Assembly: GCF_009650095.1 (NCBI RefSeq)
Contig: NZ_CP045915.1
Coordinates: 2,294,001-2,358,000, forward strand
Length of the DNA: 64,000 bases
DNA from: Gracilibacillus salitolerans
GTDB lineage: Bacteria; Bacillota; Bacilli; Bacillales; Amphibacillaceae
Direction: 5' to 3'
Shown here: piece after piece, positions 30,755 to 56,112 of the stretch
Numbering within the stretch: the stretch's first letter is position 1
Layout: each line of letters starts with the position of its first letter
Notes under the pieces: model-generated
Database searches by the model: none
What the model was told of the DNA's origin: nothing
Seen by the model: the letters and a program-made list of their open reading frames with translations, nothing else
Position numbers and translations under genes: made by a program

Positions 30755-31223
30755 CATAAACTGCGCAGTAACTTTTGTGTTCCTTCCTCCCATTCTATTT
30801 GAGATGAGTGCTAGTCCGACGCTGCGGAAAAATACTCCCTTTCCGTGGGGAACGCTTCAGCCTCCTCACAAGCAAAGAACGCTTGTTGCGGGGTCTTCAG
30901 ACTGTTCCTTTCCCACAGGAGTGTCGTATTTTTTCCGCAGCTTAGAGTAGTTTCCTGGTTAAGTAGGAGGAAATCCATAGAATCTAATCCATCAGTTCTA
31001 TTCTTCCAACAATCAAAGAATCACTACTAGCGCAGACAGAATACGCAGACTCCAGTGGGAACTCACGCGATGAAGATCCACTTGGTAAAGTGATTTTCTT
31101 TACCAAGTTAGCTAAAAACCGTCCACGGAAAGCGAAGTATTCTGCCGGAGCGGTATCACAGCACTCACCTTTAATCAGAATGGAAGAAGTAAATATGAAT
31201 TTTCACTAGTTCGCAGTAGTTAT
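30755..31223. repeat. Nested-palindrome intergenic element, copy A
   Basis: Outer inverted arms are ATAAACTGCGCAGT (about 30756) / TTCGCAGTAGTTAT (to 31223), with an inner pair CCATTCT / AGAATGG. The left module, 30821-30941 (121 bp), has tips GCTGCGGAAAAATAC / GTATTTTTTCCGCAGC and carries cassette I (ACAAGC-AAAGAAC-GCTTGT). The right module, 31035-31146, has tips GACAGAATAC / GTATTCTGCC and carries cassette II (CTTGGTAAAG-7 nt-CTTTACCAAG). It fills the rpe-thiN gap. No promoter or gene was recognised inside; short frames through it are artefacts of its GC-rich palindromes. Confidence 0.85.
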
Positions 31224-31287
31224 CTAGTGCGATTAAGGGTCGCGGGTTATGCCCTTTTTCATAAAGCAGGAAAGGTTGTTGTTTGAC

Positions 31288-31926
31288 GTGAATATTGGAA
31301 TAGTTGCAGGGGGACCAGAAAATGCTCTAGCTTCTTTAATTTCCTACCGAAAGGATATCGATATCTGGATAGGTGCGGATTTAGGAGCTTTTTATCTGTT
31401 AAAGAATCAATTACCTATTCATATCGCCATAGGTGATTTTGATTCGATTGACAAAGATAAAAAAGAGCTTATCCAACAGGAAGCAGATATTTTTCGTGAA
31501 TTTCCCATGGAAAAAAATGAAACAGATCTTGAATTAGCTGTGGAAGCAGCTCTTTCATACCATCCAGCTTCTATTTTTTTATTTGGTGTTACTGCGGGCA
31601 GACTGGATCATGAATTGGCGAATATTCAACTGCTTTATCGCCTATTAGAAAAGAATGTGAGAGCTAAAATAATTGATCATAAGAATATTTTATCTATTTA
31701 TAAACCAGGTCAGCATAAAGTTACGGCGAAAAATACAGAACTGATTTCATTTATTCCCTTAACCCCTAGTGTTGAAGGACTTACCTTACAAGGATTCTAT
31801 TATCCATTAGAAAATTATACTGTTACTTGGGGAAGTACTCGTTGTATATCAAATCAATTAATTAACGAACAAGGTACTTTTTTATTTAATGATGGCATAT
31901 TAATAATGATAAAGAGTACGGAGTAG
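31288..31926 (+). CDS. thiN: Thiamine pyrophosphokinase ThiN
   Basis: An approximately 212-residue enzyme converting thiamine to thiamine diphosphate. The TPK catalytic domain is seen as GIVAGGPENALASL, DIWIGADLGAFYLL, HIAIGDFDSIDKD and EKNETDLELAVEAAL, with FGVTAGRLDHELANIQLL. A C-terminal TPK_B1 binding part includes TWGSTRCISNQL. The GTG at 31288 is taken as start from alignment to the family N terminus (AGGAAAGG 12 nt upstream). TTG codons at 31276 and 31279 are alternatives, and a longer frame from 31249 is less likely. It follows element copy A. Confidence 0.9.
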   Translation: MNIGIVAGGPENALASLISYRKDIDIWIGADLGAFYLLKNQLPIHIAIGDFDSIDKDKKELIQQEADIFREFPMEKNETDLELAVEAALSYHPASIFLFGVTAGRLDHELANIQLLYRLLEKNVRAKIIDHKNILSIYKPGQHKVTAKNTELISFIPLTPSVEGLTLQGFYYPLENYTVTWGSTRCISNQLINEQGTFLFNDGILIMIKSTE

Positions 31927-32061
31927 GAGCATCCGTAAATTCTTATGAAATTATGGAAAGGTATGCAATTATAGTCGTGTATCCTCATAAGCTGTATTAG
32001 AATCCATATGTTGCAATAATAATGATGAGGTTATGTCTTCATGGTGAAGAGGAGGGGTATG

Positions 32062-32139
32062 ATGAAATTTTATACAATTAAGCTCCCACGGTTTATCGGA
32101 GGTTTCATTCGAGCTTTGTTAGGTTCAGGGAAAAAATAA
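32062..32139 (+). CDS. spoVM: Stage V sporulation protein M
   Basis: A 25-residue amphipathic peptide, nearly the length of B. subtilis SpoVM (26). It begins MKFYTIKLPRFIGGFIRALLG. SpoVM recognises the convex forespore membrane and anchors SpoIVA for spore-coat assembly; Pro9, needed for that, is conserved. The ATG at 32062 lies 6 nt after GGAGG (32051-32055); the ATG just before it (32059) is too close. Location between thiN and convergent rpmB is exactly the B. subtilis order. Confidence 0.93.
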   Translation: MKFYTIKLPRFIGGFIRALLGSGKK

Positions 32140-32143
32140 AGAA

Positions 32144-32172
32144 AAAAGGCTCCTTGCAAACAGGAGCCTTTT
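32144..32172. terminator. Bidirectional terminator between spoVM and rpmB
   Basis: An 11-bp stem, AAAAGGCTCCT / AGGAGCCTTTT, has A- and T-rich sides, usable from both convergent genes. Confidence 0.85.
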
Positions 32173-32205
32173 CTCTTCTCTTCTTTTAAGAGTTGATTAT
32201 AAAAA

Positions 32206-32394
32206 TTAAACGCGTTCTACTTTGCCTGATTTAAGCGCGCGAGCAGAAACATACACACGTTTTGGTTTGCCGTCAACCATAATTCTAACTTTTTGTACGT
32301 TTGCTTTCCAGTTACGCTTATTTGCATTCATAGCGTGTGAACGGTTATTACCTGAAGTCGTTTTACGACCAGTTACTACACATTTACGTCCCAT
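32206..32394 (-). CDS. rpmB: 50S ribosomal protein L28
   Basis: A 62-residue L28. Visible are [23 protein letters not shown] at the N terminus (split here only by name) and [23 protein letters not shown]. It retains only one cysteine where some L28 paralogues have a zinc ribbon, so it is the zinc-independent form. It is transcribed opposite to the cluster, as in B. subtilis. The ribosome-binding site is GTAGGAGGGAACGAAGTA before ATG. Confidence 0.95.
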
Positions 32395-32684
32395 TACTTC
32401 GTTCCCTCCTACTAACTCAATCCATACTTATATAATTTATCATAGTTTTTATTATTTTGCAATTTCAAATTGTAAAAGTATGAGTGAAATAGAGTTAGCA
32501 AGTTTTTCTCAGTTGCTTTGGTCCATTGGTCCTTGAGCTTTTCCTATAATGCTTGACATAGACGTGATTTTCATACATTCTATAATGGAATACCCTTATT
32601 TTCTCTTGTTATCGAATCAAACTATAAAATGGTGTAAACGATGATGGAACTTTTTCTTTTATTTATTAAGAAGGAGGATAAAAA

Positions 32685-33047
32685 ATGTCAATAGAATTAA
32701 AAACTAAAGATGGTCATGTAACTATTACCAATGAAGTAATAGCAACTATTGCTGGTGGTGCTGCTATTGAATGTTATGGTATTGTTGGTATGGCTTCCAA
32801 AAAACAATTACGTGATGGTATAGCAGAAATCCTTAGGAAAGAAAATTTTGCCAAAGGTGTTGTCGTTCGACAAGACGATGAAGATGTACATATTGATATG
32901 TATATCATTGTAAGCTATGGTACAAAAATATCCGAAGTTGCACATAATGTACAATCACAAGTAAAATATAATCTTGAAAAAACGCTCGGTTTAAAAATCA
33001 AATCGATCAATATTTATATTCAAGGAGTACGTGTGATACAAGATTAA
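32685..33047 (+). CDS. yloU: Asp23/Gls24 family protein YloU
   Basis: A 120-residue Asp23 (alkaline shock) family protein. Core motifs are VTITNEVIATIAGGAAIECYGIVGMASKK and DVHIDMYIIVSYGTKISEVAHNVQ, ending NIYIQGVRV. Staphylococcal Asp23 is a membrane-associated stress protein; the YloU role is unknown, but it is always next to yloV/fakA, as here. The ribosome-binding site is AAGGAGGATAAAAA. A -35-like TTGACA (32553) and a TATAAT (32581) upstream are 22 bp apart, so the promoter is not resolved. Confidence 0.92.
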   Translation: MSIELKTKDGHVTITNEVIATIAGGAAIECYGIVGMASKKQLRDGIAEILRKENFAKGVVVRQDDEDVHIDMYIIVSYGTKISEVAHNVQSQVKYNLEKTLGLKIKSINIYIQGVRVIQD

Positions 33048-33111
33048 TTTTTTTGATATATAATACAAACTTCATTATTTCGGAAAAAGGAGTAGAGGGA
33101 GGAACAATCAA

Positions 33112-34776
33112 GTGACGCAAAAAAACATAGGTGGAGCATTGTTTGCCAATATGGTATTAGCTGGTGCGCGCAGCTTAGCAAATAATGCAGAAAAAATAGA
33201 TGCTTTAAATGTCTTCCCAGTACCTGATGGTGATACTGGGACCAATATGAATTTATCGATTACTTCAGGAGCAAGCGAAGTTAAAAAAGCAAATCATGAA
33301 AGTGTCTCCGTTGTAGCTAACGCATTTGCTAAAGGATTGCTAATGGGAGCAAGAGGTAATTCAGGTGTTATCTTATCACAATTATTCAGAGGCTTTGCCA
33401 AAGGGTTAGAAGGGAAAACTAACTTGGACATTGAAAGTTTCGTTGTAGCACTCGACAGTGGTGTGAATACCGCATATAAAGCAGTAATGAAACCGGTAGA
33501 AGGAACGATTCTTACCGTTGCGAAAGACACAGCTGCTGAAGCAAAGGTGATTGCAGAAGAAGAACAGGATGTTATTTCTTTTATGGAACAAGTAGTCCAA
33601 GCTGCCAAACAATCTTTGAAAAGAACGCCGGAACTATTACCAGTATTAAAAGAGGTTGGAGTAGTTGATAGTGGTGGACAGGGCTTAGTCGTTATCTATG
33701 AAGGATTTTTAGCAGCGTTAAAAGGGGAAGAAGTACCTGAATCTTCTCAAGATGACACAATGGATTTAGATGACCTTGTCAATGCAGAGCATCACAAGCT
33801 GGCACAAGACTATATGAGTACGGATGAGATTGAGTATGGTTATTGTACAGAGTTTATGGTTCGTTTTGAAAAAGATAAACTGAAAGACCATCCATATGAT
33901 GATGCGACGTTTAGAGAAGAATTAAGCGAGCATGGTGACTCCTTATTAGTAGTATCAGATGACGAAATTGTGAAAGTTCATATTCATGCGGAATACCCTG
34001 GTGATGTTTTCAATTTAGGACAACGTTTTGGTAGTTTTATTAATTTAAAAGTAGAGAATATGAGAGAACAACATTCCAACATTGTTGATCAGAAAGAGGA
34101 TAAACCAAAGGCTAAACAACCTTTTGGAGTTGTAACAGTTGCTATGGGAGATGGGCTAACGCAATTATTTAAAAGCCTAGGAGCAACGGTGGTGATTCAA
34201 GGTGGTCAAACGATGAATCCAAGTACACAGGATTTAGCGAATGCCGTAGAAGAGGCAAACGCCGAAAATGTTATTATCTTGCCAAATAACAAGAATATCG
34301 TGATGGCTGCTGAACAGGCTGCAGAATTAGCGGAAGTTAATGTAGTAGTAGTGCCGACGAAAACAATCCCACAAGGTATGTCAGCTATGTTAACGTATAA
34401 TCCGGAGGTTAGTTTAGACGACAATAAAGAAACAATGACTGATGCAAGCCAGGAAGTGAAAACGGGTCAAGTTACCTATGCCGTTCGTGATACACAGATA
34501 GAAGGTATGACGATTGAAAATGGGCATTATATGGGGCTTGCTGATGGAAAAATTAAAGTAACTAATGCTGATCAAATGACTGTTATTAAGGAATTATTAA
34601 CAGAAATGATTGATGCAGATGAAGACGAGATTGTCACTGTTATTCGTGGAGAAGAAACTTTTGATCAAGAAGAAAGTGAGATTATTGCATTTATTGAGGA
34701 TAATTTTGAAGATATAGAAGTGGAAGTTCATCGAGGGAACCAACCGATCTATTCTTATATATTTTCTATCGAATAA
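33112..34776 (+). CDS. fakA: Fatty acid kinase subunit FakA (YloV, DegV-partner kinase)
   Basis: A 554-residue DhaL/DegV-partner kinase phosphorylating fatty acids bound to FakB (DegV) proteins, feeding exogenous fatty acids to phospholipid synthesis. The N-terminal DhaL domain (1-200) binds ATP through NVFPVPDGDTGTNMNLS, GARGNSGVILSQLF and VVDSGGQGLVVI. The middle and C-terminal parts have CTEFMVRFE, HIHAEYPGDVFNLG and the LPNNKNI segment. The GTG start at 33112 follows GGGAGGAAC. Its link to plsX/fapR lipid genes 4 kb downstream is functionally apt. In B. subtilis sdaAB-sdaAA would follow; here element copy B does. Confidence 0.93.
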   Translation: MTQKNIGGALFANMVLAGARSLANNAEKIDALNVFPVPDGDTGTNMNLSITSGASEVKKANHESVSVVANAFAKGLLMGARGNSGVILSQLFRGFAKGLEGKTNLDIESFVVALDSGVNTAYKAVMKPVEGTILTVAKDTAAEAKVIAEEEQDVISFMEQVVQAAKQSLKRTPELLPVLKEVGVVDSGGQGLVVIYEGFLAALKGEEVPESSQDDTMDLDDLVNAEHHKLAQDYMSTDEIEYGYCTEFMVRFEKDKLKDHPYDDATFREELSEHGDSLLVVSDDEIVKVHIHAEYPGDVFNLGQRFGSFINLKVENMREQHSNIVDQKEDKPKAKQPFGVVTVAMGDGLTQLFKSLGATVVIQGGQTMNPSTQDLANAVEEANAENVIILPNNKNIVMAAEQAAELAEVNVVVVPTKTIPQGMSAMLTYNPEVSLDDNKETMTDASQEVKTGQVTYAVRDTQIEGMTIENGHYMGLADGKIKVTNADQMTVIKELLTEMIDADEDEIVTVIRGEETFDQEESEIIAFIEDNFEDIEVEVHRGNQPIYSYIFSIE

Positions 34777-34780
34777 AACC

Positions 34781-34813
34781 AAAAGCTCTATCCAAGGCGA
34801 TAGAGCTTTTTAT
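34781..34813 (+). terminator. Terminator after fakA
   Basis: A 12-bp perfect stem, AAAAGCTCTATC (34781-34792) / GATAGAGCTTTT (34799-34810), is followed by TATCC. Confidence 0.85.
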
Positions 34814-34849
34814 CCATGATAAGAACAAAATTAATCGAGCACAAAACCG

Positions 34850-35296
34850 ATAAACTGAGAAGTTATACTCTTCTCTTTTAGAGATGTGCTTTTCTTCCAT
34901 TCTTTTATTGATGAGTGCATGATCATCGCTGTGGAAAAATACTCCCTTTCCGGGGGCGGTTTTTAGTTAACTTGGTAAAGAAAAGCACTTTACCAAGTGG
35001 ATCTTCAGCTCGCGCTATTCCCCCAGGAGTGTCGCATTTTTCCGCAGCTTATATTAGTTTTTTATAAAGTAACTGAAAACCCTAGAATACCATTCCATGA
35101 GTTATATTCTTCCACTAATCAAAGAATCTTACTATCACAGGCAGAATACGAAGACTCCAGTGGGAACAGCGCGAGCCGATGACCCTGCACCCGGCCGGAA
35201 AGCGAAGTATTCTGCCGGAGCGATTCACAGCATCATCTAAAATAAGAATGGAAGAAAGCTTCATCCTATAATATTCATTAATTCACGGTTTTAACC
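34850..35296. repeat. Nested-palindrome intergenic element, copy B
   Basis: Outer arms are ATAAACTGAGAAGTTAT / ATTCACGGTTTTAACC, with TTCTTCCATTCT / AGAATGGAAGAA inside. The left module, 34928-35048 (121 bp), has tips GCTGTGGAAAAATAC / GCATTTTTCCGCAGC and carries cassette II (CTTGGTAAAG-AAAAGCA-CTTTACCAAG). The right module, 35140-35216, is only 77 bp. It has intact tips GGCAGAATAC / GTATTCTGCC but the inner cassette is reduced to a short GC-rich piece. It replaces the sdaAB-sdaAA position of B. subtilis. Confidence 0.85.
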
Positions 35297-35385
35297 TTCT
35301 GGGAATCCGGTGAAGTGAATGGGTGGGTTTTGCTGAATATTGTTATGTTCGTATTCTATAATTGAATTAAGAGAGTGTGAGTGAA

Positions 35386-37419
35386 ATGAATAATATTTCT
35401 GTTCAAGATGTGAAAGGTGTCGGGCCAAAGCTTGCTGAAACGCTCAAGAAAATTGGTATCCACACGGTTGAAGATCTGCTATATTACTTTCCTAACCGAT
35501 ATGATCATTATGAACAAAAACCACTTCATGAACTGATACATAATGAAAAAGTGACGATAGTAGGTGAAGTAATTCACGATCCAACTGTACAATTTTATCA
35601 GAGAAAAAAATCACGAATGATAGTTTCTTTGCGTGTAGATGGAGCAGTTGTAAAGGGTGTCCTCTTTAACCGTGCTTTTGCAAAAAAACATTTTATTCCT
35701 GGTGAGGAAGTATCGGTAAATGGAAAATGGGATCAGCATCGATTACAAATAACGATTGATAATTATAAAATGGGCACGATAGACGGCTCAAGCCCTATTA
35801 CTCCGATTTACTCTTCTAAAGGAGACATAAAAAATGCCCAATTCCAAAAAATCACGGAGAATGCTTTGTCTTCCTTCCGTGACCAAGTTACTGAAATTAT
35901 CCCGACTTCTTACTTAGTTAATTACAAATTACCGAATCGGACCGATGCCTTGGAAAATATTCATTTTCCTTCATCTTTTCAACAATTAAAACATGCAAAG
36001 AGACGTTTTATCTATGAAGAATTATTACTGTTTCAAATAAAAATGCAACTCTACCGAAAGAGAAATAGGGAAGCTACAGAAGGTAATGCGAAAGAAATCA
36101 GCATGAAAAAAGTAAAACAATTGATGGAGCAGTTTCCTTTTACCCTAACTTCTGCTCAAAAAAAATCCTTAGCAGAAATTTTCAAGGATTTGCAATCGCC
36201 TTACCGGATGAATCGATTGTTACAGGGAGATGTAGGTTCAGGTAAGACTGCTGTAGCAGTTATTAGTCTTTATGGTGTTGTTACAACTGGTGAACAAGTT
36301 GCTTTAATGGTGCCAACAGAAATATTAGCGGAACAACATGAAGAATCACTAAAACAGTTGCTACCAGTTGATGTGAAGGTTCAGCGGTTAACAGGATCAA
36401 TAAAAGGCAAAAAAAGAAAAGAAACGTTAACAGAAATTGAAAACGGCTCATGTGATGTCGTGATAGGTACACACGCACTTATTCAAGATGATGTTAATTT
36501 TCACAATTTAGGATATGTCATTATTGATGAACAACATCGGTTTGGTGTGCAACAACGTAACACATTACGTGAAAAAGGTATACTAGCAGATATTTTATTT
36601 ATGACAGCAACGCCTATACCAAGAACTTTATCCATTACTGCTTTTGGAGATATGGATGTATCAAAAATTGATGAAATGCCTAAAGGCAGGAAGCCGGTTG
36701 AAACATATTGGGTCAAGCATAATATGTTTGAAAGAACCGTTAATTTTGTATATAAGGAAATAAAGAAAGGATCTCAAGCATATATTATTTGTCCGTTAAT
36801 TGAGGAATCAGATAAATTAGATATTCAAAATGCACTGGATTTATATCATCAATTACAAGAGATTTTAAAAGGGAAAGCAACAGTAGGACTTATGCATGGC
36901 AGATTAACTACAGAAGAAAAAGAACAAGTAATGAATGATTTTGCTGAAAATAAGGTACAAATATTAGTTTCGACGACAGTAGTAGAAGTAGGGGTTAATG
37001 TTCCGAATGCTACGGTGATGATGATTCAAGACGCAGATCGATTTGGATTATCACAATTACACCAATTAAGAGGACGTGTCGGGAGAAGTGACAAGCAAAG
37101 TTATTGTATTTTAGTAGCAGATCCTAAAGGTGAAACAGGGAAAGAACGCATGCGAATTATGACTGAAACAACTGATGGATTTGTTTTAGCAGAGCGAGAT
37201 TTAGAACTTCGTGGACCTGGTGATATATTTGGTGTTAAACAAAGCGGGTTACCGGAATTTAAATTAGCAGATTTGGTACATGATTATCGAGCATTAGAAA
37301 CAGCAAGAGATGATGCAGTAGATATTGTGGAAAATGAATTATGGAAGGCTTCCGAGTTTCAAGCATTGATTAAGTACTTACTTTCTAAAATTGAAATTGA
37401 TCAGCAATTATTAAATTAG
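35386..37419 (+). CDS. recG: ATP-dependent DNA helicase RecG
   Basis: A 677-residue branch-migration helicase that remodels stalled forks and recombination intermediates. The N-terminal region has VKGVGPKLAETLKKIGIHTVEDLLYYFPNRYD, and the wedge/OB domain (about 60-150) follows. Walker A is LLQGDVGSGKTAVAV, DExx YVIIDEQHRFGVQQR, and motif III FMTATPIPRTL. Motifs V-VI are STTVVEVGVNVPNATVMMI and LRGRVGRSDKQSYC, then the TRG segment. ATG 35386 is taken as start; an in-frame GTG lies at 35377. It begins directly after element copy B. Confidence 0.95.
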   Translation: MNNISVQDVKGVGPKLAETLKKIGIHTVEDLLYYFPNRYDHYEQKPLHELIHNEKVTIVGEVIHDPTVQFYQRKKSRMIVSLRVDGAVVKGVLFNRAFAKKHFIPGEEVSVNGKWDQHRLQITIDNYKMGTIDGSSPITPIYSSKGDIKNAQFQKITENALSSFRDQVTEIIPTSYLVNYKLPNRTDALENIHFPSSFQQLKHAKRRFIYEELLLFQIKMQLYRKRNREATEGNAKEISMKKVKQLMEQFPFTLTSAQKKSLAEIFKDLQSPYRMNRLLQGDVGSGKTAVAVISLYGVVTTGEQVALMVPTEILAEQHEESLKQLLPVDVKVQRLTGSIKGKKRKETLTEIENGSCDVVIGTHALIQDDVNFHNLGYVIIDEQHRFGVQQRNTLREKGILADILFMTATPIPRTLSITAFGDMDVSKIDEMPKGRKPVETYWVKHNMFERTVNFVYKEIKKGSQAYIICPLIEESDKLDIQNALDLYHQLQEILKGKATVGLMHGRLTTEEKEQVMNDFAENKVQILVSTTVVEVGVNVPNATVMMIQDADRFGLSQLHQLRGRVGRSDKQSYCILVADPKGETGKERMRIMTETTDGFVLAERDLELRGPGDIFGVKQSGLPEFKLADLVHDYRALETARDDAVDIVENELWKASEFQALIKYLLSKIEIDQQLLN

Positions 37420-37425
37420 ATTCAC

Positions 37426-37475
37426 TTGCATAATTTTTAATGGTATTATATATTACTATTAGTACCTAGTCATAA
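37426..37475 (+). promoter_or_regulatory. fapR promoter with FapR operator
   Basis: -35 TTGCAT (37426-37431), a 17-nt spacer and -10 TATATT (37449-37454) are followed by TTAGTACCTAGTCATAA (37459-37475). This closely matches the FapR operator (TTAGTACC-type) placed over the transcription start. It predicts malonyl-CoA-responsive autorepression of the fapR-plsX-fabD-fabG unit. Confidence 0.85.
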
Positions 37476-37520
37476 TTTTCCGATTAACGGATGATGACTT
37501 GCAGATGGACGGTGGAATTC

Positions 37521-38102
37521 ATGAAAAGAAATAAAAAAGAACGGCAGTCGATGTTAAAGGAAACAATCGAAGCAAAGCCCTTCATCACTGATGATGCACT
37601 AGCAAAATTATTTGATGTCAGTATACAGACGATCCGTTTAGATCGGATGGAGTTAAATATTCCGGAGTTACGTGAACGGATCAAATCAGTCGCAACAAAT
37701 AATTGGAATGAAACGGTTAAGGCATTACCAATCGATGAGGTTATCGGCGAAATTATTGACCTAGAGTTAGATGAGCGTGCCATTTCCATATTGGATATTA
37801 CTACAGAGCATGTTTTTTCACGAAATAAAATTGCGCGGGGGCATCATTTGTTCGCCCAGGCAAACTCTCTTGCTGTTGCTGTTATCAATGATGAACTAGC
37901 CCTAACAGCTAATGCTGATATTAAATTTACCCGTCAAGTAGTACAGGGAGAACGAGTTATTGCAAAAGCACACGTAGCAGGCACAGAAAAAAACAATCGT
38001 ACGGTAGTAGAAGTGCATAGCTATGTAGATAACGAAACGGTTTTTTCAGGAGTATTTGAAATGTTTCGATCGAATCAAGAGAAGGAAGGGAACGAGTCAT
38101 GA
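37521..38102 (+). CDS. fapR: Fatty acid biosynthesis repressor FapR
   Basis: A 193-residue repressor with an N-terminal DeoR-like HTH ([34 protein letters not shown], about 25-60). A C-terminal hot-dog domain binds malonyl-CoA ([38 protein letters not shown] core). Malonyl-CoA releases it from operators of lipid genes. The start is ATG 37521 (MKRNKKERQ) after GGTGG; an upstream in-frame ATG at 37491 lies too near the operator. It overlaps plsX by 4 nt. Its own operator is at 37459-37475. Confidence 0.95.
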
Positions 38103-39103: not shown

Positions 39104-39106
39104 ATC

Positions 39107-40051: not shown

Positions 40052-40053
40052 TT

Positions 40054-40794: not shown

Positions 40795-40829
40795 GATAGT
40801 ACATATACTTTGAAAGGAGGTGACGTGAA

Positions 40830-41063: not shown

Positions 41064-41118
41064 AACTGTTGAAACAAGTAATAAGTGGCTGTATAAAAGT
41101 ATAGTCAAAAAGAGATAA

Positions 41119-41157: not shown

Positions 41158-41190
41158 TTGTAAGAGGAATAAAACCTTTACAATTTAGGG

Positions 41191-47802: not shown

Positions 47803-47820
47803 GTTCAAGGAGGTAAAATA

Positions 47821-48816: not shown

Positions 48817-48894
48817 TCTCCAAACTTGACAGTCCTGCTTTAAGATGATTAGACTGAAGTGTAAAGGTATTTTACTTAACGAGGTGTCCTTTTT

Positions 48895-49221
48895 ATGTTA
48901 GAAAAAACGACAAGGATTAACGCTCTTTATGATTTTTACCAACAATTGCTGACCGAAAAGCAACGAAATTATATGGAGATGTACTATGTAGAAGATTTCT
49001 CTTTGGGGGAAATTTCGGAAACATCCAATGTATCAAGACAAGCAATTTATGATAATATTCGAAGAACGGAACATATGCTAGAAGAATATGAGGAAAAGCT
49101 TGGTCTTTATCAAAAGTTTTTGAAACGACAAGCTTTACTTCAAGAGTTGCATGGATTAGCAAAAGAAAACAATGACCGAGAATTGAAGGAAAAAGTAGAA
49201 CAGATTATTGAAATAGAATAG
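48895..49221 (+). CDS. ylxM: YlxM/p13 family HTH protein
   Basis: A 108-residue UPF0122 protein upstream of ffh. It has a sigma-4-like [44 protein letters not shown] split across helices at about 18-58, then coiled helices. Streptococcal YlxM modulates SRP assembly and Ffh GTPase activity; a similar role is likely. It sits 12 bp before ffh. The ribosome-binding site is GAGGTGTCC. Confidence 0.93.
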
Positions 49222-49233
49222 GGGGCGTATAGT

Positions 49234-50595
49234 ATGGCATTTGAAGGTTTAGCCGACCGCCTGCAGAATACCATTCAAAAAATTAAGGGAAAAGGTAAAG
49301 TAACCGAACAAGATGTTAAGGAAATGACGAGAGAAGTACGTCTAGCTTTATTAGAAGCGGACGTAAACTTTAAAGTCGTTAAGGACTTTATTAAGAAAGT
49401 AAAAGAACGTGCAATTGGCCAGGAAGTAATGGAAAGCTTAACTCCAGGTCAGCAAGTAATTAAAGTGGTGAAAGAAGAATTAACTGAACTAATGGGTGGC
49501 GATGAAAGTAAGATTGCAGTTGCTGATAAACCGCCAACTGTGATCATGATGGTTGGTTTACAAGGTGCTGGTAAAACAACCACGACTGGAAAGTTAGCCA
49601 ATTTATTAAGAAAAAAATATAATCGTAAACCGTTATTAGTTGCCGCTGATGTTTATCGTCCAGCTGCAATTGATCAGCTTGAAACTTTAGGAAAGCAATT
49701 GGATATGCCCGTATATTCAGAAGGAACTGACGCAAACCCGGTAGATATTGCAAATAAAGCAATGGAACATGCCAAAGAGGAACATTTAGATTATGTCCTC
49801 ATTGATACAGCCGGACGTCTCCATGTGGACAACGAGTTAATGGATGAATTGATTCAGATTAAACAAAACGTTAATCCTGATGAAGTCTTTTTAGTTGTTG
49901 ACTCGATGACGGGTCAAGATGCGGTCAATGTTGCTGAAAGCTTTAATGAACAATTAGATATTTCCGGTGTTGTATTAACGAAACTTGATGGGGATACTCG
50001 AGGTGGTGCGGCATTATCAATTAAAGCTGTAACAGAAAAACCGATCAAATTCGCCGGTATGGGTGAAAAATTAGATCAAATAGAAGTGTTCCACCCAGAA
50101 CGAATGGCATCTCGGATCTTAGGTATGGGCGATGTGTTATCGTTAATTGAAAAAGCACAGGATAATGTTGATGAGAAAAAAGCGAAAGAATTAGAAGAAA
50201 AAATGCGCTCAGCTTCCTTTACCTTTGACGATTTTCTAGAACAAATGGGACAAGTGAAAAATATGGGGCCGCTTGATGAATTAATAGACATGATACCAGG
50301 CGCTAATAAAATGAAGGGTCTCAAAAATGTTGATTTTGATGAAAAGCAAATTTCCCACGTAGAAGCGATTATTCAATCGATGACAGCGAAAGAACGTCAG
50401 GACCCAAGTGTGATTAATGCCGGTCGTCGTAAACGTATAGCAAAAGGATCCGGGCGCTCTGTTTCAGAAGTAAACCGTTTGTTGAAACAATTTGAAGAAA
50501 TGAAAAAAATGATGAAACAAATGAGTAATATGCAACAAGGAAAGAAAGGCAAAAAAGGAAAAAAATCGAAAGGATTTAATTTTCCATTCATGTAA
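49234..50595 (+). CDS. ffh: Signal recognition particle protein Ffh
   Basis: A 453-residue SRP54 GTPase binding signal peptides and SRP RNA. It has the N domain (1-90); the G domain with VGLQGAGKTTTTGKLA, DVYRPAAIDQL, DTAGRLHVDNELM and TKLDGDTRGGAAL; and the M domain (300-453) with GRSVSEVNRLLKQFEEMKKM split by name and a Lys/Gly tail (GKKGKKGKKSK). The ribosome-binding site is AGGGGGCG. Followed after 78 bp by rpsP with its own promoter. Confidence 0.96.
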   Translation: MAFEGLADRLQNTIQKIKGKGKVTEQDVKEMTREVRLALLEADVNFKVVKDFIKKVKERAIGQEVMESLTPGQQVIKVVKEELTELMGGDESKIAVADKPPTVIMMVGLQGAGKTTTTGKLANLLRKKYNRKPLLVAADVYRPAAIDQLETLGKQLDMPVYSEGTDANPVDIANKAMEHAKEEHLDYVLIDTAGRLHVDNELMDELIQIKQNVNPDEVFLVVDSMTGQDAVNVAESFNEQLDISGVVLTKLDGDTRGGAALSIKAVTEKPIKFAGMGEKLDQIEVFHPERMASRILGMGDVLSLIEKAQDNVDEKKAKELEEKMRSASFTFDDFLEQMGQVKNMGPLDELIDMIPGANKMKGLKNVDFDEKQISHVEAIIQSMTAKERQDPSVINAGRRKRIAKGSGRSVSEVNRLLKQFEEMKKMMKQMSNMQQGKKGKKGKKSKGFNFPFM

Positions 50596-50606
50596 GGTAA
50601 AAAACC

Positions 50607-50635
50607 TTTACAGACTAAAATAAATCTGATACAAT
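50607..50635 (+). promoter_or_regulatory. Promoter of rpsP
   Basis: TTTACA (50607-50612), a 17-nt spacer and TACAAT (50630-50635), 38 bp before the start codon. A short GGTAAAAAACC dyad just upstream could weakly end ffh transcription. Confidence 0.7.
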
Positions 50636-50673
50636 TCTATCTTGTGTGAGATATTTATATGGAGGTGTTAAAC

Positions 50674-50943
50674 ATGGCAGTAAAAATTCGCTTAAAGCGT
50701 ATGGGTTCTAAAAGAAATCCATTCTATCGTATCGTAGTTGCGGATTCTCGTTCACCACGTGATGGACGTATTATCGAACAAATTGGAACATATAACCCGG
50801 TAGTTAATCCGGTTGAAGTGAAACTAGATGAAGATAAAGCACTTGATTGGATGACAAAAGGTGCGAAACCAAGTGATACGGTACGTAATTTATTCTCAAC
50901 TGAAGGCATCATGAAGAAATTCCACGAATCAAAAAATCAATAA
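50674..50943 (+). CDS. rpsP: 30S ribosomal protein S16
   Basis: An 89-residue S16 needed for 30S assembly. It starts [20 protein letters not shown] and continues [21 protein letters not shown], with [16 protein letters not shown]. The start ATG 50674 follows ATGGAGGTG; an upstream in-frame codon at 50659 precedes the ribosome-binding site and is rejected. Its neighbours khpA, rimM, trmD and rplS form the conserved ribosome-biogenesis run. Confidence 0.96.
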
Positions 50944-50960
50944 TAAAGTGATGTGATTCG

Positions 50961-51188
50961 ATGAAATCATTGATTGAAACAATTGTGGAACCATTAGTTG
51001 ATCATCCTGATGCAATTGTTGTTACGGAAAATGAAGAGGAAAACAAAATTGTGTATCATCTTCAAGTTCATGAAAATGATGTAGGTAAAGTGATCGGTAA
51101 AAATGGCCGCATTGCCAAATCAATACGAACAGTTGTTTATGCAGCTGGAATGAAATCTAATAAAAAAATCTATTTAGATATCATGTAA
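50961..51188 (+). CDS. khpA: KH-domain RNA-binding protein KhpA (YlqC)
   Basis: A 75-residue protein consisting of one KH domain with the GxxG loop in GKVIGKNGRIAKSIR (Gly-Lys-Asn-Gly). KhpA pairs with KhpB/Jag in Firmicutes to bind RNA and influence cell elongation. It follows rpsP by 17 bp. A strong terminator directly after it and the 700-bp gap holding element copy C split it from ylqD. Confidence 0.93.
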   Translation: MKSLIETIVEPLVDHPDAIVVTENEEENKIVYHLQVHENDVGKVIGKNGRIAKSIRTVVYAAGMKSNKKIYLDIM

Positions 51189-51220
51189 AAAGAGGGAGGC
51201 GAAAAGCCCCCTCTTTTTTA
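51189..51220 (+). terminator. Terminator after khpA
   Basis: The stem AAAGAGGGAGGC / GCCCCCTCTTT with loop GAAAA is followed by TTT. Confidence 0.85.
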
Positions 51221-51262
51221 TAAGCAGAAATATTAAATAAAATAAATAGAGATCACCGTATA

Positions 51263-51750
51263 CATAAACTGCGAAGTAAATTTTTAATGGATTTGCTTTC
51301 TGCCATTCTGATTTATGCTGAGCGTTGGGAAACGCTCCGGCAAGATACTTCGCTTTCCACGGGCACGGCCTCAGCCTCCTCGACAAGCAAAGTTCGCTTG
51401 TCTGCGGGGTCTTCGGACACGTGCTGTTCCCGTAGGAGTCTGCGTATCTTGCCTCCGCTTTGCGTAGTGTTTTGATTTTCTAAAGAAGTAATATACGGGA
51501 ATTGGTTTCTGAGTATTTCCACTTTAAAAAGATTGAATAATGTTATTAGCGTAGGCAGAATACGGAGACTCCTGTGGGAATAGCACAAGCCGAAGATCCA
51601 CTTGGTAAAGTGGTTTTCTTTACCAAGTTAGCTGAGGCTGTGCCCACGGAAAGCGCAGTATTCTGCCGAAGCGGTATTCCAGCACTCTTTATCGAAAGAA
51701 TGGAAGAAAGTTATACTAAACAGAATTTTCACAAGTTCGCAGTTGTAATC
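51263..51750. repeat. Nested-palindrome intergenic element, copy C
   Basis: Outer arms are ATAAACTGCGAAGTAAA / ACAAGTTCGCAGTTGT, with GCCATTCT / AGAATGGAAGAAAG inside. The left module, 51339-51453, has a variant tip pair GGCAAGATAC / GTATCTTGCC (other copies use GCGGAAAAATAC) and carries cassette I (GACAAGC-AAAGTTC-GCTTGTC). The right module, 51554-51667, has tips GGCAGAATAC / GTATTCTGCC and cassette II (CTTGGTAAAG-TGGTTTT-CTTTACCAAG). It separates khpA and ylqD, which are adjacent in B. subtilis. Confidence 0.85.
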
Positions 51751-51890
51751 TTCTAAGAATCAGGAGAGGGGATTGAATGCGAGGGTGGGCGGGTTTATCT
51801 AGTGTATACTTGCGCTTTTGTCTGGTGACGTGCTATTCTTTTGTTAGGTGTTTTCATGCTCTTTAATAGTATGGGAGAGAGGCTGAAACA

Positions 51891-52277
51891 ATGAAAATTA
51901 TTAAAAAAATTGCCGTCAAAAAAATAGTAACGGATCAAAGTAAAGGACAACTGAGGGAAGAATACCAATTCAAGATTTTTAAACTCGAACAGGAATGTGA
52001 ACAATTAAAGTTTGAGCAAAAAAAATTAGAACAGCGCTCAGCAAACAAAAAAGCAGACATCGAAGCCAAATTCAAGAAAGAAATGGCTAATCGTAAGGAT
52101 CATATAAAATGGTATAAATACAAACTCGAACAACTGGAAATATTACCAACCGGGAGCGAAATTAATGATGGGGAAGTCGAAGCAGTTATCGATATCGAAG
52201 AAGGTATGAACTGGGACGATTTAACAGAACAAACAGCCATTATTGTGAAAGATGGCATGATTACGAAAATTACATAA
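51891..52277 (+). CDS. ylqD: YlqD family protein
   Basis: A 128-residue protein matching YlqD, a Bacilli-specific protein of unknown function always placed between khpA and rimM. Visible are an N-terminal basic part (KIIKKIAVKKIVTDQSK), a central charged coiled coil (about 25-85) and a C-terminal domain with the acidic VIDIEEGMNWDDLTEQTAIIVKDGMI segment (written as family-like). The ribosome-binding site is GAGAGGCTGA. rimM follows after 17 bp. Confidence 0.85.
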   Translation: MKIIKKIAVKKIVTDQSKGQLREEYQFKIFKLEQECEQLKFEQKKLEQRSANKKADIEAKFKKEMANRKDHIKWYKYKLEQLEILPTGSEINDGEVEAVIDIEEGMNWDDLTEQTAIIVKDGMITKIT

Positions 52278-52294
52278 CAGGTGGTATGAAATAA

Positions 52295-52804
52295 ATGGAT
52301 CATTTAAAAGTAGGGAAAATTGTCAATACACATGGAATAAAAGGAGAAGTAAAAGTAGTACGAATTACCGATTTCGAAGAACGTTTCGAAATGGGCTCTA
52401 CATTATGGATTAAAGAAAAAGAAGATGCGGCATTAAAACCAGTTACCATTGATGGTCATCGTATTCACAAAAATTTTGATTTATTGCATTTCGAAGGATA
52501 TAACAATATCAGTGATGTAGAACATTTCAAAGAATCATTGTTAGTTATTAATACAGACCAGCTTACAGAATTAGAAGACAATGAATTTTATTATCATGAA
52601 GTGATTGGTTGTGAGGTAGAAACAACTACAGGGGAATTGATCGGGAAGGTCAAAGAAATACTTTCACCTGGCGCAAATGATGTGTGGGTAGTGAAACAAA
52701 AAGGGAAGGAATATTTAATCCCATATATTGAAGATGTCGTCAAAGAAGTAGATATTGAAAACCAGAAGATTAAAATTGAACCGATGGAAGGGTTATTAGA
52801 CTGA
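52295..52804 (+). CDS. rimM: 16S rRNA processing protein RimM
   Basis: A 169-residue maturation factor that binds S19 and helps shape the 30S head. The N-terminal RimM domain shows [22 protein letters not shown] and the C-terminal PRC-barrel shows [31 protein letters not shown] and [16 protein letters not shown]. It overlaps trmD by one base (TGATG), the standard coupled arrangement. Confidence 0.95.
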
Positions 52805-53547
52805 TGAAAATAGATATACTGTCATTATTTCCGGAAATGTTTCATGGTGTTTTTCAATCTTCCATTTTAAAAAAAGCACATGAGGCAGATGCTTTTCAGT
52901 ATAATTTTGTGAATTTTCGTGATTATACGGATAATAAACACAATAAAGTAGATGACTATCCTTATGGCGGAGGCGCGGGTATGGTATTAAAACCTCAACC
53001 TATTTTTGATGCAGTAGAGGCGATTGAAAAAAACACGTCTCAAAAACCTCGTGTTATTTTGATGTGTCCTCAAGGAGAAACCTACTCGCAAAAGAAAGCA
53101 GAAGAACTTGCAAAAGAAGAACATTTAATCTTTATATGTGGTCATTACGAGGGCTATGATGAGCGAATTAGAACAGAGCTTGTTACCGATGAGATATCGA
53201 TTGGTGACTATGTGCTGACAGGTGGAGAATTAGGTGCTATGGTCGTGATTGACAGTGTTGTCCGCTTATTACCAGACGTGTTAGGTAACGAAGATTCTGC
53301 TGTTCAGGATTCTTTTTCAACAGGTTTATTAGAGCATCCCCATTTTACGCGACCGGCTGATTTCCGAGGCTTAAAAGTTCCAGACGTATTGTTATCAGGA
53401 AACCATGCTCATATTGAAGAATGGCGTAAAAAAGAAGCGTTAAAAAGAACCTATTTTAGAAGACAAGATTTATTGCAAAATCTACAGTTAACGGAAAATG
53501 AAAAGAAATGGATAAAAGAATGGGAAACTTCACAAGAAAATAGTTGA
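52804..53547 (+). CDS. trmD: tRNA (guanine-37-N1)-methyltransferase TrmD
   Basis: A 247-residue SPOUT-class, SAM-dependent enzyme making m1G37, which prevents +1 frameshifting. It has the trefoil-knot signature: [45 protein letters not shown], and [17 protein letters not shown] with catalytic Asp in EDSAVQDSF (GNEDSA). It ends at the -35 element of the rplS promoter. Confidence 0.96.
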
Positions 53548-53572
53548 ATTCCCTTTGTTGATATGCTATATT
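53544..53572 (+). promoter_or_regulatory. Promoter of rplS
   Basis: TTGAAT (53544-53549, overlapping the trmD stop codon), a 17-nt spacer and TATATT (53567-53572). Confidence 0.65.
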
Positions 53573-53577
53573 GATAG

Positions 53578-53655
53578 TTGTGCTTAAGTGAACGCTTAAG
53601 GTGAATAAACGATGTTCCGCTGCCGCGTAGACGTTAAGAACATTGGTTTGGAAGG
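53578..53655 (+). ncRNA. Ribosomal protein L19 leader (candidate)
   Basis: The 5' UTR of rplS folds into two visible stems: CTTAAG-TGAACG-CTTAAG (about 53583-53600) and ATGTTC (53613-53618) / GAACAT, spanning CGCTGCCGCGTAGACG. Location and compact two-hairpin form fit the known Firmicutes L19 leader, thought to mediate autoregulation by L19. Family membership was not tested by a covariance model. Confidence 0.6.
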
Positions 53656-53666
53656 AGTGTAACAGA

Positions 53667-54011
53667 ATGCAAAAATTAATCGAAGAAATTACAAAAGATC
53701 AACTTAAAACTGATTTACCTGAGTTTCGTGCTGGTGATACGGTAAAAGTTCACGTGAAAGTTGTGGAAGGTAACCGTGAACGTATTCAGGTATTCGAAGG
53801 TGTTGTCATTAAACGCCAAAATGGTGGTATTAGTGAAACATTTACAGTTCGTAAGATTTCTTACGGTGTAGGGGTTGAACGTACATTCCCTGTGCATTCA
53901 CCACGAATTGATAAAATCGAAGTGAGTCGTCGTGGTAAAGTTCGTCGTGCGAAGCTTTATTATCTACGTAATCTACGTGGTAAAGCAGCGCGTATTAAAG
54001 AAATTCGCTAA
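53667..54011 (+). CDS. rplS: 50S ribosomal protein L19
   Basis: A 114-residue L19 at the 30S-50S interface. Motifs are [58 protein letters not shown] and [15 protein letters not shown]. The start ATG 53667 has GGAAGGAGTG upstream; the earlier in-frame codon at 53643 lies inside the leader and is rejected. Terminator at 54024. Confidence 0.96.
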
Positions 54012-54023
54012 TGAGTATTGTGT

Positions 54024-54057
54024 AAAAAGGAGCTTGCATTGTCAGGCTCCTTTTTCT
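54024..54057 (+). terminator. Terminator after rplS
   Basis: A 10-bp perfect stem, AAAAAGGAGC (54024-54033) / GCTCCTTTTT (54046-54055), is followed by CTTCT. Confidence 0.88.
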
Positions 54058-54111
54058 TCTATATAATATTCCTAGGAGTACTTGTAGTGTATGAAGGAAA
54101 GGGATCTTTTC

Positions 54112-54663
54112 ATGACTGAAAAAAAGGTTGATTGGGTTGATTGGATAAAAACCATTGTCATTACGGGATTAATTGTGATTATATTTCGCATGTTTATTGC
54201 GGTACCGATTGTAGTAGAGGGACCATCCATGTTACCAACTCTAGAGGATAAAGATCGAATTATCGTCAATAAGATAAGCTTATTGTTTGATGAACCAGAT
54301 CGTTTTGATGTTGTTGTTTTTCATGCTACGGCGAAGAAGGATTACATAAAAAGGGTGATTGGTTTGCCCGGTGATTCCATTATTTATAAAGATGATCAAT
54401 TATATATTAATGGACAACCAGTTGAAGAACCGTTTATTGATGCAGAAATAGCAAACGACCAATCAAATTATACAACGAATTTTACCTTGCAAGATATACC
54501 AGGCAATGCTGAAGAAGTTCCTGAGGGACATGTATTTGTTTTAGGAGATAATAGGCCCAATTCAACAGATAGTAGACATCTAGGATTCATATCGATGGAT
54601 CAAATAGTAGGAATTGCTGGTGTAACGTATTGGCCAGTGGATAACATCGGCTTCGTTGATTAA
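54112..54663 (+). CDS. lepB: Type I signal peptidase
   Basis: A 183-residue membrane-anchored SipS-like peptidase that cleaves signal peptides on the outer face. It has a short cytosolic N terminus, one helix (TIVITGLIVIIFRMFIAVPI, about 12-31), the catalytic Ser in VEGPSMLPTLEDKDRIIVNK and Lys in KKDYIKRVIGLPGD. Box E is VFVLGDNRPNSTDSRHLG. ATG 54112 follows AAGGAAAGGGAT; an upstream in-frame ATG (54091) lacks a good site. The slot between rplS and rbgA is used for lepB in several Bacillaceae. Confidence 0.92.
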   Translation: MTEKKVDWVDWIKTIVITGLIVIIFRMFIAVPIVVEGPSMLPTLEDKDRIIVNKISLLFDEPDRFDVVVFHATAKKDYIKRVIGLPGDSIIYKDDQLYINGQPVEEPFIDAEIANDQSNYTTNFTLQDIPGNAEEVPEGHVFVLGDNRPNSTDSRHLGFISMDQIVGIAGVTYWPVDNIGFVD

Positions 54664-54687
54664 GATAGCAGAAAAAGAGGTGGGTAT

Positions 54688-55533
54688 ATGACAATACAAT
54701 GGTTTCCGGGACATATGGCCAAAGCCAAAAGAGAAGTACAAGAAAAATTAAAATTGGTTGATTTTGTGATTGAATTAGTAGACGCAAGGGCGCCAGAGTC
54801 ATCACAAAATCCCCTTTTACAGCAAATTTTAAATCAGAAACCCAAAATGGTTGTGCTAATGAAAGATGACTTGGCTGATCCGGTATCGACAAAAGCTTGG
54901 CTTAGACATTTCTCAGAGCAAGGCATGGTTGCCATAGCAGTGAATGTTAATGACCGCAAGGATTTACAGCACGTCATTCAAAAAGCAAAGGATATGGCCA
55001 AGGATAAGATGGACCGTTTAAAGAAGAAAGGTGTTCGTCCAAGACCGGCACGCGCAATGATTATTGGAATACCAAATGTCGGCAAGTCAACTTTAATTAA
55101 TCGGTTAGTACATAAGAAGATAGCCAAGACTGGTGATAAACCAGGTGTGACGAAGAATCAACAGTGGATAAAAGTAAAAAAGGATTTTGAATTATTAGAT
55201 ACACCCGGTATTCTTTGGCCAAAATTTGAGGAGCAAGTAGTTGGTTATCGACTAGCAGCTATTGGTACAATCAAGGATCAATTGCTCCCGATAGAAGATA
55301 TAGCAGCTTTTGTGATTCAATATTTACAAGCAACTTATCCTTCCGTATTAAAGGACCGTTATCAAATGTCAGAGGATAATGAGGATATGAATGATATATT
55401 TGAGCATATCGGTAGGGGAAGAGGTTGCCTTGAATCAGGTGGCAGAGTGAATTTTGAAAAAACAGCCGACATCATCCTTCAAGACTTGCGGTCTGGAAGA
55501 TTAGGAAGTATAACGCTTGAAAAACCAGAATAG
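54688..55533 (+). CDS. rbgA: Ribosome biogenesis GTPase RbgA (YlqF)
   Basis: A 281-residue circularly permuted GTPase required for late 50S assembly. It has an N-terminal IQWFPGHMAKAKREVQ with catalytic His in the GHM motif, then G4-like LMKDDLADP, G1 IIGIPNVGKSTLINRL and G3 LLDTPGILWPKFEEQ. The C-terminal ANTAR-like helical domain (about 200-281) has RGRGCLESGGRVNFEKTADIIL. The ribosome-binding site is AGAGGTGGG. A long terminator follows, then element copy D. Confidence 0.95.
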   Translation: MTIQWFPGHMAKAKREVQEKLKLVDFVIELVDARAPESSQNPLLQQILNQKPKMVVLMKDDLADPVSTKAWLRHFSEQGMVAIAVNVNDRKDLQHVIQKAKDMAKDKMDRLKKKGVRPRPARAMIIGIPNVGKSTLINRLVHKKIAKTGDKPGVTKNQQWIKVKKDFELLDTPGILWPKFEEQVVGYRLAAIGTIKDQLLPIEDIAAFVIQYLQATYPSVLKDRYQMSEDNEDMNDIFEHIGRGRGCLESGGRVNFEKTADIILQDLRSGRLGSITLEKPE

Positions 55534-55566
55534 CTACAGGTATATGGAGGCTTATAAAGCGATCAG

Positions 55567-55616
55567 AAAAGTATACACCCCGTTTCAAGTACAAAAGAAA
55601 CGAGTGTATACTTTTT
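55567..55616 (+). terminator. Long terminator after rbgA
   Basis: The extended stem AAAAGTATACAC-CCGTTTC / GAAACGAGTGTATACTTTTT, about 19 pairs with one mismatch, has a 10-nt loop. It is symmetric enough to work on both strands. Confidence 0.85.
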
Positions 55617-55639
55617 GTATTAAAAGAAAGCACAAAAAA

Positions 55640-56112
55640 CATAAACTACGAAGTTAGATTTACTTTCTTCCATACTGCATTTTGAGGAGTGATTGACCGT
55701 CGCTGCGGAAAAATACTCCCTTTCCGGGGGCGGTTTTTAGCTAACTTGGTGATGAAAACCGCATCACCAAGTGGATCTTCAGCTCGCGCTATTCCCCCAG
55801 GAGTGTCGCATTTTTCCGCAGCTTTGACTAGTGTTTTTGAATAGTGAGAAGAAGTCCCTTGCTCATATATCCAAAGATTTTCTTCTTTTAACAATCAGAA
55901 CATTAGAACCAGCGGAGGCAGAATACGGAGACTCCTATGGGAACAGCACGCGTCCGAAGACCCCGCAGGAAAGCGCACTTTGCTTTCTGAGGAGACTGAG
56001 GCCGTGCCCATGGAAAGCGTAGTATTCTGCCGGAGCGTTTCCGACACACCACTTCAAAAGAATGGAAGAAAGCCAAACTAACGAGAATTTTCAGTGGTTC
56101 GTAGTTTTTATC
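55640..56112. repeat. Nested-palindrome intergenic element, copy D
   Basis: Outer arms are ATAAACTACGAAGTTAG / GTGGTTCGTAGTTTTTAT, with CTTTCTTCCAT / ATGGAAGAAAG inside. The left module, 55702-55822 (121 bp), carries cassette II with an altered stem (CTTGGTGATG-AAAACCG-CATCACCAAG). The right module, 55917-56031, carries cassette I in inverted orientation (GGAAAGC-GCACTTT-GCTTTCT). The cassette order is the reverse of copies A and C. It lies between rbgA and rnhB, which are adjacent in B. subtilis. Confidence 0.85.

What the first reader, a model, noticed from the sequence alone, without database searches (positions are those of the whole stretch)
30755..56112. A family of four long nested-palindrome intergenic elements in the core gene cluster
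Copies at 30755-31223, 34850-35296, 51263-51750 and 55640-56112 share one plan. Outer inverted arms (ATAAACTGCGAAG-like with TTCGCAGT-like; CTTTCTTCCATTCT with AGAATGGAAGAAAG) enclose two inner palindromic modules of about 75-121 bp. The left modules of A, B and D are exactly 121 bp. No protein-coding pattern fits: frames are short and differ between copies. All four sit between co-directional housekeeping genes, mostly right after a terminator. I recall GC-rich palindromic repeats in halophilic Bacillaceae genomes that produce spurious short hypothetical proteins, but know of no functional description. A non-autonomous mobile element or a structured RNA/ssDNA element is plausible.
Basis: partly seen in the sequence, partly recalled or inferred. 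Interest (0 to 1): 0.8.

Follow-up and report, generated by a model that had tools for sequence, protein, structure and literature searches.

The report
Mobile palindromic elements sharing structured module
The four long palindromes are copies of a non-coding mobile element present about a hundred times in this genome, and at their core is a folded hairpin module, found in most related bacteria and carried by several unrelated mobile shells, that we could not find described.

Summary
A-D are copies of a ~490-510 bp element; profile hits form 102 clusters, fragments included, in this 5.09 Mb genome. It has inverted ends, inner arms and two inverted ~125 bp modules. The module is the larger find. 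A covariance model hits 153 of 199 genomes sampled from the order, no Rfam family matches, and 21 of 27 pairs covary. On its conserved strand G.U pairs outnumber A.C mismatches (56:16, 52:7), so that strand folds single-stranded. The module sits in at least three element families with unrelated ends. In one recent family (G115), 15 of 21 copies have perfect 8-bp target duplications, so that family is a transposed MITE. Site A is empty in 7 of 10 relatives. Elements lie 3' of genes, co-directional with the upstream gene in 55 of 64, between divergent genes in 2 of 64. RAYT/REPIN mobilisation is not supported. No transposase was identified, the window's family shows no target duplication, and RNA versus ssDNA is undecided. 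Best reading: MITE-like elements carrying an order-wide structured hairpin, probably acting as RNA at gene 3' ends.

The parts
30746..31236 (+). Element A (between genes I read as rpe and thiN; gene names here are recalled from gene order, not tested)
   Evidence: nhmmer profile hit; empty site in 7 of 10 relatives
30755..30768 (+). A left end (CATAAACTGCGAAG-like)
30783..30944 (-). A left arm plus left module (conserved strand is -)
   Evidence: model R1 hit
31027..31190 (+). A right module plus right arm
   Evidence: model R1 hit
31210..31226 (+). A right end (TTCGCAGT...TATCTA)
34839..35307 (+). Element B (between a yloV-like gene and recG)
   Evidence: same site occupied in G016 (truncated), G014, G008, G011, G012
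34890..35051 (-). B left arm plus left module
35132..35258 (+). B right module, internally deleted, plus right arm
51254..51763 (+). Element C (downstream of rpsP and a small KH-like gene)
   Evidence: site occupied in G014, G008
51296..51461 (-). C left arm plus left module
51546..51710 (+). C right module plus right arm
55630..56123 (+). Element D (between rbgA and rnhB)
   Evidence: occupied in G014, empty in G011, G010, G006, G004, G003, G009
55663..55825 (-). D left arm plus left module
55909..56072 (+). D right module plus right arm

Best explanation
The four elements are copies of a non-autonomous, MITE-like transposable element. Shown: many dispersed copies, inverted ends, an empty site, no coding pattern, and transposition with 8-bp target duplications for a sister family that carries the same module inside a different shell. 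Inferred: a transposase supplied in trans moved the window's family too. The shell carries one or two copies of a ~125 bp hairpin module; two close modules are nearly always inverted with their conserved strands facing outward (22 of 23 pairs; the exception rests on a weak match). Shown: base pairing of the module on that one strand is under selection, with conserved internal loops and a conserved tandem G.A motif (CTGAAG opposite CTGAAG). Inferred: the folded form is RNA. The outward arrangement makes the conserved hairpin the 3'-proximal one in a transcript entering from either side, so read-through RNA from a neighbouring gene ends in it, and it would stabilise or terminate 3' ends of neighbouring transcripts. 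This would make insertions downstream of terminators harmless or useful and help the elements persist.
For: 102 clusters of profile hits in the genome. Empty site A: rpe-thiN gaps of 0-35 bp in 7 of 10 relatives against 551 and 615 bp in G000 and G016. In G115, of 21 elements of 188-190 bp with GGCTCTGTTAAA ends, 15 have perfect 8-bp A/T-rich duplications and 3 have one mismatch; 0.67 perfect matches expected by shuffling over the 23 pairs tested. Module: 94.9% of cells paired against 75.3% in shuffles and 33-45% when slid, 21 of 27 pairs with changes on both sides; a largely separate set, fitted to the model, gives 95.9% and 22 of 27. G.U 56 against A.C 16, and 52 against 7. Distribution 153 of 199 genomes of the order. 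Pairs of close modules '-+' 22 of 23. Upstream gene co-directional in 55 of 64, divergent sites 2 of 64. Terminator-like signal just upstream of the left end in 21 of 41 full-length copies against a mean of 0.5 in shuffled flanks.
Against: No target duplication in 41 full-length copies of the window's family (longest shared word 6.1, shuffled 6.4). No transposase found: no Y1_Tnp in this genome, no IS1595 transposase in G115; other transposase families were not searched. None of the 102 clusters spans more than 699 bp, too short for an autonomous version. Whole-element folding does not favour either strand (21 of 41 copies). No expression data. In G115, 7 of 9 module copies are antisense to both neighbouring genes, so co-direction is not needed at insertion; of 48 isolated modules 31, not all, follow the upstream gene. 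An ssDNA fold tolerating G.T would give the same covariation.
Confidence: 0.62

Rival explanations
1. REPIN-like single-stranded DNA element: an inverted doublet of palindromes moved by a Y1 (RAYT/IS200-type) transposase at the lagging strand, with the module as the ssDNA recognition hairpin.
For: Inverted doublet architecture (22 of 23), no target duplication in the window's family, and orientation that agrees with the presumed replication direction in 51 of 58 copies outside the presumed terminus region, including 8 of 9 at convergent sites. 26 of 30 module-bearing genomes encode a Y1_Tnp match, many of them IS200-sized.
Against: This genome, with about a hundred copies, has no Y1_Tnp match, nor do G003, G010 and G014. 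None of 20 loci with RAYT-size Y1 frames has a module within about 2.5 kb. The G115 family has 8-bp target duplications, which Y1 transposases do not make (recalled). Orientation is confounded with gene direction, and the replichore borders were set by me after seeing the data.
Confidence: 0.15
2. The palindromes are maintained without function: old MITE copies kept palindromic by template switching and kept alike by gene conversion.
For: Modules resemble paralogues in the same genome (0.91-0.96 for 7 of 8) far more than modules at the same site in sister species (0.43-0.84), and mosaics exist (left modules 97-98% alike with right modules 69-74% alike).
Against: Template switching should erase the conserved asymmetric loops and the tandem G.A motif and should not favour G.U over A.C on one strand. 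The two modules of one copy are less alike than modules of different copies (0.725 against 0.777, 27 copies). The core is conserved across the order.
Confidence: 0.15
3. The whole ~500-base element is one structured RNA gene with its own terminator, not a mobile element.
For: Whole-element fold z -17. A GGGTTNN terminator-like motif within 80 bases after the right end in 10 of 41 copies, 1.6 expected.
Against: No strand preference of the whole fold, no Rfam match, empty sites, module content replaced between species, shells replaced between genera. A full terminator-like signal follows in only 8 of 41 copies.
Confidence: 0.05

Closest known systems
Bacterial MITEs (bcr1 of Bacillus cereus, RUP, NEMIS, ERIC, EFAR)
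   Same: Non-coding, inverted ends, intergenic, multi-copy, folding near genes; listed together in PMC3733652 (passages read). In B. cereus about half of bcr repeat copies were found in transcripts, and bcr3 correlates with mRNA half-life (PMC3446304, passages read).
   Different: The inner module is shared by shells with unrelated ends and spans the order; bcr1 is called specific to the B. cereus group in the title of a reference.
REPINs / RAYT-associated REP doublets
   Same: Two inverted palindromic modules, extragenic.
   Different: Much larger (REPs are 20-40 bp in PMC3733652, abstract seen), no resident Y1_Tnp here, no module beside 20 Y1 loci, and a related family makes 8-bp duplications.
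BIME / BOX mosaic repeats
   Same: Mosaic of palindromic modules at gene 3' ends (recalled for BIME/BOX).
   Different: No sequence relation known to me; not tested.
Bhal-1 (74 bp, B. halodurans) of Petrillo et al. 2008
   Same: Intergenic stem-loop repeat of a Bacillales genome, 36 copies; in a table of PMC2267715 (passages read).
   Different: Sequence not available to me; whether it is part of this module is untested.

Membership tests
MITE | Short, non-coding, many dispersed copies | tested here: met
   102 clusters, full copies ~490-510 bp; no coding pattern
MITE | Terminal inverted repeats | tested here: met
   ACTGCGAA ends in inverted order
MITE | Target site duplication | tested here: inconclusive
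   Not seen in 41 full-length copies of the window's family; 15 of 21 perfect 8-bp duplications in the G115 family carrying the module
MITE | Ends match a transposase-encoding element | tested here: inconclusive
   None among the 102 clusters; PF12762 absent from G115; other transposase families not searched
MITE | Empty site in relatives | tested here: met
   Site A empty in 7 of 10 relatives
REPIN/RAYT | Inverted doublet of palindromes | tested here: met
   22 of 23 close pairs '-+'
REPIN/RAYT | RAYT (Y1_Tnp) in the genome, flanked by the repeat | tested here: not met
   No PF01797 match in G000; 0 modules in 20 Y1 loci of relatives
REPIN/RAYT | GTAG or CGTC tag at the foot of the palindrome | not tested
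   -
Known structured RNA (Rfam) | Match to a covariance model at the gathering score | tested here: not met
   0 matches in the window; in 20 loci of relatives only a TPP riboswitch away from the module
Structured RNA/ssDNA in general | Compensatory base changes beyond chance | tested here: met
   21 of 27 and 22 of 27 pairs; 0 of 500 shuffles reach the covariation score

The most novel reading that the evidence does not exclude
The ~125 bp module is itself a selfish or domesticated structured replicator: a single-strand-folding hairpin that jumps or recombines between unrelated MITE shells, has spread through the order and into other families of the class, replaces its own copies at fixed chromosomal sites, and acts on 3' ends of host transcripts in either direction. 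It would be an undescribed class of bacterial interspersed repeat comparable in reach to REP/BIME.
Probability: 0.3. Interest if true: 0.87.

Novelty: new variant of a known kind. Interest (0 to 1): 0.68.

Why it matters
A repeat with a strongly covarying fold in 153 of 199 sampled genomes of a large bacterial order, without a match in Rfam 15 in the stretches tested, means that many intergenic regions and perhaps many short spurious proteins in Bacillales are parts of one element class. If the module acts on RNA 3' ends it would be a mobile regulator seeded beside housekeeping genes. The shared cargo in different shells also makes testable how a non-coding module passes between transposon families.

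Tried and rejected
Protein-coding origin: rejected. RAYT/REPIN mobilisation: no Y1_Tnp match in this genome, no modules near 20 Y1 loci. IS1595 as the source of the GGCTCTGTTAAA shell in G115 (a guess from memory): PF12762 absent, so the transposase family is open. Target duplications of the window's family: not found. Long-hairpin model (left module selected to pair with right): the two modules of a copy are less alike than those of different copies, although the predicted whole fold (-193) is deeper than the sum of two trimmed halves (-111). One old insertion with turnover against re-insertion at a hot spot at sites B-D: not separable, because shell ends differ between species as much as between paralogues (left end 0.62-0.78 against a paralogue mean of 0.74, right end 0.61-0.75 against 0.68). 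Rfam at a relaxed threshold on five G115 loci gave one weak match (CsrC, 18.5 bits against a gathering score of 61). Literature: ten searches listed no paper that I could see to describe this module; most subscription papers are not held, so this is no proof of absence.
Full report
OBSERVATION. They align end to end and fold far better than shuffles (C: -233 against -139 kcal/mol, z -17; A: z -7.7). BLAST with copy C found 97 matching pieces in the genome with only 40 of 143 candidates scored. A covariance model of the right module found 149 modules (150 of 1377 candidates scored). A full-length profile run over stretches fetched around those modules and around 24 further end matches gave 102 clusters; these include fragments and several members of a second family, and copies without a scored module may be missing. 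The next copy starts 0.9 kb beyond the window. Gene names used here (rpe, thiN, recG, rbgA, rnhB, rpsP and so on) are recalled from gene order and size, not tested by a call.

ANATOMY. From the ends inward: a left end GCRCA...CATAAACTGCGAAG, an arm CTTTCTTCCATTCT, a left module (conserved strand on -), a centre with TAGTGTTCTGATTA / TAATCAGAACAC, a right module (conserved strand on +), an arm AGAATGGAAGAAAG, and a right end TTCGCAGTTTGTATCTACTGCGAATCAG. The right end is itself a palindrome. In 10 of 41 full-length copies a GGGTTNN motif follows within 80 bases (1.6 in shuffles), and a full terminator-like signal in 8 of 41.

WHERE COPIES SIT. Of 64 copies that could be oriented with confidence (38 of 102 clusters were left out as too short or ambiguous), the gene upstream of the left end runs the same way in 55; both neighbours co-directional 44, convergent 11, both opposed 7, divergent 2 (genes are simple ORF calls). 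The median distance from the upstream ORF to the element is 66 bp over the 55. A T-run lies within 100 bases before the left end in 31 of 41 full-length copies (median distance 22), and a terminator-like signal in 21 of 41 against a mean of 0.5 in shuffled flanks. Orientation also agrees with the presumed replication direction in 51 of 58 copies outside 2.55-2.9 Mb; these borders were set after looking at the data, and origin and terminus were not measured, so replication and transcription are not separated.

MOBILITY. Site A is empty in G014, G008, G010, G006, G004, G003 and G009 (rpe-thiN gap 0-35 bp) and occupied in G016, G011 and G012. Site B is occupied in G016 (truncated), G014, G008, G011 and G012, and has no match in G010, G006, G004, G003 and G009. 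Site C has matches in G014, G008, G011, G012, G010 and G006, none in G004, G003 and G009, and was not covered in G016. Site D is occupied in G014, has gaps of 79-171 bp in G011, G010, G006, G004, G003 and G009 and a 432-bp gap without a match in G012, and was not covered in G016 and G008. In G011 and G012 the modules at B and C have other stems. Of the 12 named relatives L031-L042, one (Paraliobacillus, L032) has a match at C or D. No target duplication is visible in 41 full-length copies.

CONTENT TURNOVER. The eight modules of A-D resemble their best paralogue in the same genome at 0.91-0.96 (7 of 8; B's truncated right module 0.70) but modules at the same site in sister species only at 0.43-0.84 (10 comparisons, some lowered by length differences). 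Some copies share left modules at 97-98% while their right modules are 69-74% alike, although over all copy pairs left and right identities are correlated (rho 0.48; 27 copies). So modules are exchanged between copies. Whether whole elements are also re-inserted at the same place cannot be told.

THE MODULE IS THE CONSERVED UNIT. Aligned modules from 43 places in relatives and this genome keep GACTCC, CTGAAG...CTGAAG and GGAAAGCGAAG while the stems change. 21 of 27 pairs have changes on both sides; 94.9% of cells are paired against 75.3% shuffled and 33-45% slid. A second set of 47 (at least two places shared with the first, and fitted to the model) gives 22 of 27 and 95.9%. On the conserved strand G.U outnumbers A.C 56 to 16 and 52 to 7; related sequences are not independent, and by columns the first set has G.U in 14 and A.C in 7, the second G.U ahead in 12 and A.C ahead in 2. 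Pairing is thus selected on that strand as a single strand. CTGAAG opposite CTGAAG makes tandem G.A pairs; in 3 of 43 it is replaced by full complementarity. Whole elements show no strand preference, as expected with one module on each strand; half-elements show a weak one in module orientation (51 of 80, p 0.007).

DISTRIBUTION. No Rfam family reaches its gathering score on it in the window or in 20 loci of relatives. When two modules lie within 500 bp the arrangement is '-' then '+' in 22 of 23; the one '--' pair (L271) rests on a 33-bit match, which I had dropped. A Radiobacillus kanasensis plasmid shows '-+' between rsmA and yabG. Isolated modules: upstream gene co-directional in 31 of 48, both opposed 12, divergent 5 (one place counted twice).

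DIFFERENT SHELLS. In G115 the module sits in a 189-bp element with GGCTCTGTTAAA ends; the end pattern has 75 matches against 6 for the reversed control. In the 38 loci examined, 21 elements of 188-190 bp were found; 15 have perfect 8-bp duplications, 3 one mismatch, 3 more mismatches; over the 23 pairs tested (two likely false pairings) 0.67 perfect matches are expected by shuffling. This is direct evidence of transposition by a duplication-making enzyme. Four G115 copies (L328, L329, L333, L346) have lost the hairpin but keep the shell. In G159 and in this genome the module sits in elements with GAGGCTGGGACA ... TGTCCCARCCTC ends, without duplications that I could see. The window's family has ACTGCGAA ends. 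One module, at least three shells.

MECHANISM. Shown: transposition of one shell family, selection on single-strand folding of the module, 3' placement. Inferred: the window's family moved likewise, and the module works as RNA. The outward doublet puts the conserved hairpin last in a transcript from either side. Against co-direction as a need, 7 of 9 G115 copies are antisense to both neighbours. Mobile repeats of the B. cereus group are known in UTRs, and bcr3 correlates with half-life (PMC3446304, passages read), which makes an effect on mRNA plausible. ssDNA folding at replication remains possible.

KNOWN KINDS. It works like a MITE. Formal membership of the window's family as a MITE is incomplete: duplication not seen, transposase not found. 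It resembles REPINs in architecture but fails the RAYT test. It matches no Rfam family in the stretches tested. Ten literature searches listed no description that I could see; Bhal-1 in PMC2267715 is an untested candidate.

Noticed in passing
L174 (own genome C1:2063055-2064161): A broken IS110-family transposase (PF02371) lies inside the left module of an element copy, at CAGGAGT, the conserved loop.
   Followed up: partly
L344, L356 (G115 contig ends): Two module copies are interrupted after GACTCCT by the same sequence, which matches 9 plasmid records; in the two looked at, ltrA group II intron genes lie ~440 bp (Peribacillus asahii) and ~1.6 kb (P. simplex) downstream of the match. With the IS110 case this suggests that the module loop is an insertion hot spot.
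   Followed up: partly
own genome C1:1476716, 2225593, 2705409, 2768179, 3400480, 3585121, 4637364, 4650404, 4675096: A second, younger family: single module between AGAGGCTGGGACATAAC and TGTCCCAACCTCT, a likely bidirectional terminator.
   Followed up: partly
L227-L246: Relatives carry RAYT-size Y1 transposase frames without modules nearby; their own targets were not looked for.
   Followed up: no
own genome C1:74750, 450978, 627692, 640067, 2239601, 2359186: Some modules are ~220 bp long instead of ~125. Modules of like length with a long extra tip are seen in G014 and G008; not aligned with each other.
   Followed up: no
L339: Another G115 shell is interrupted after GAGACTCC by at least 1.4 kb with an unidentified 228-aa ORF.
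   Followed up: no
window 30698-31248: Element A and its downstream terminator-like sequence separate rpe from thiN, which are nearly adjacent in seven relatives; effect on thiN expression unknown.
   Followed up: no
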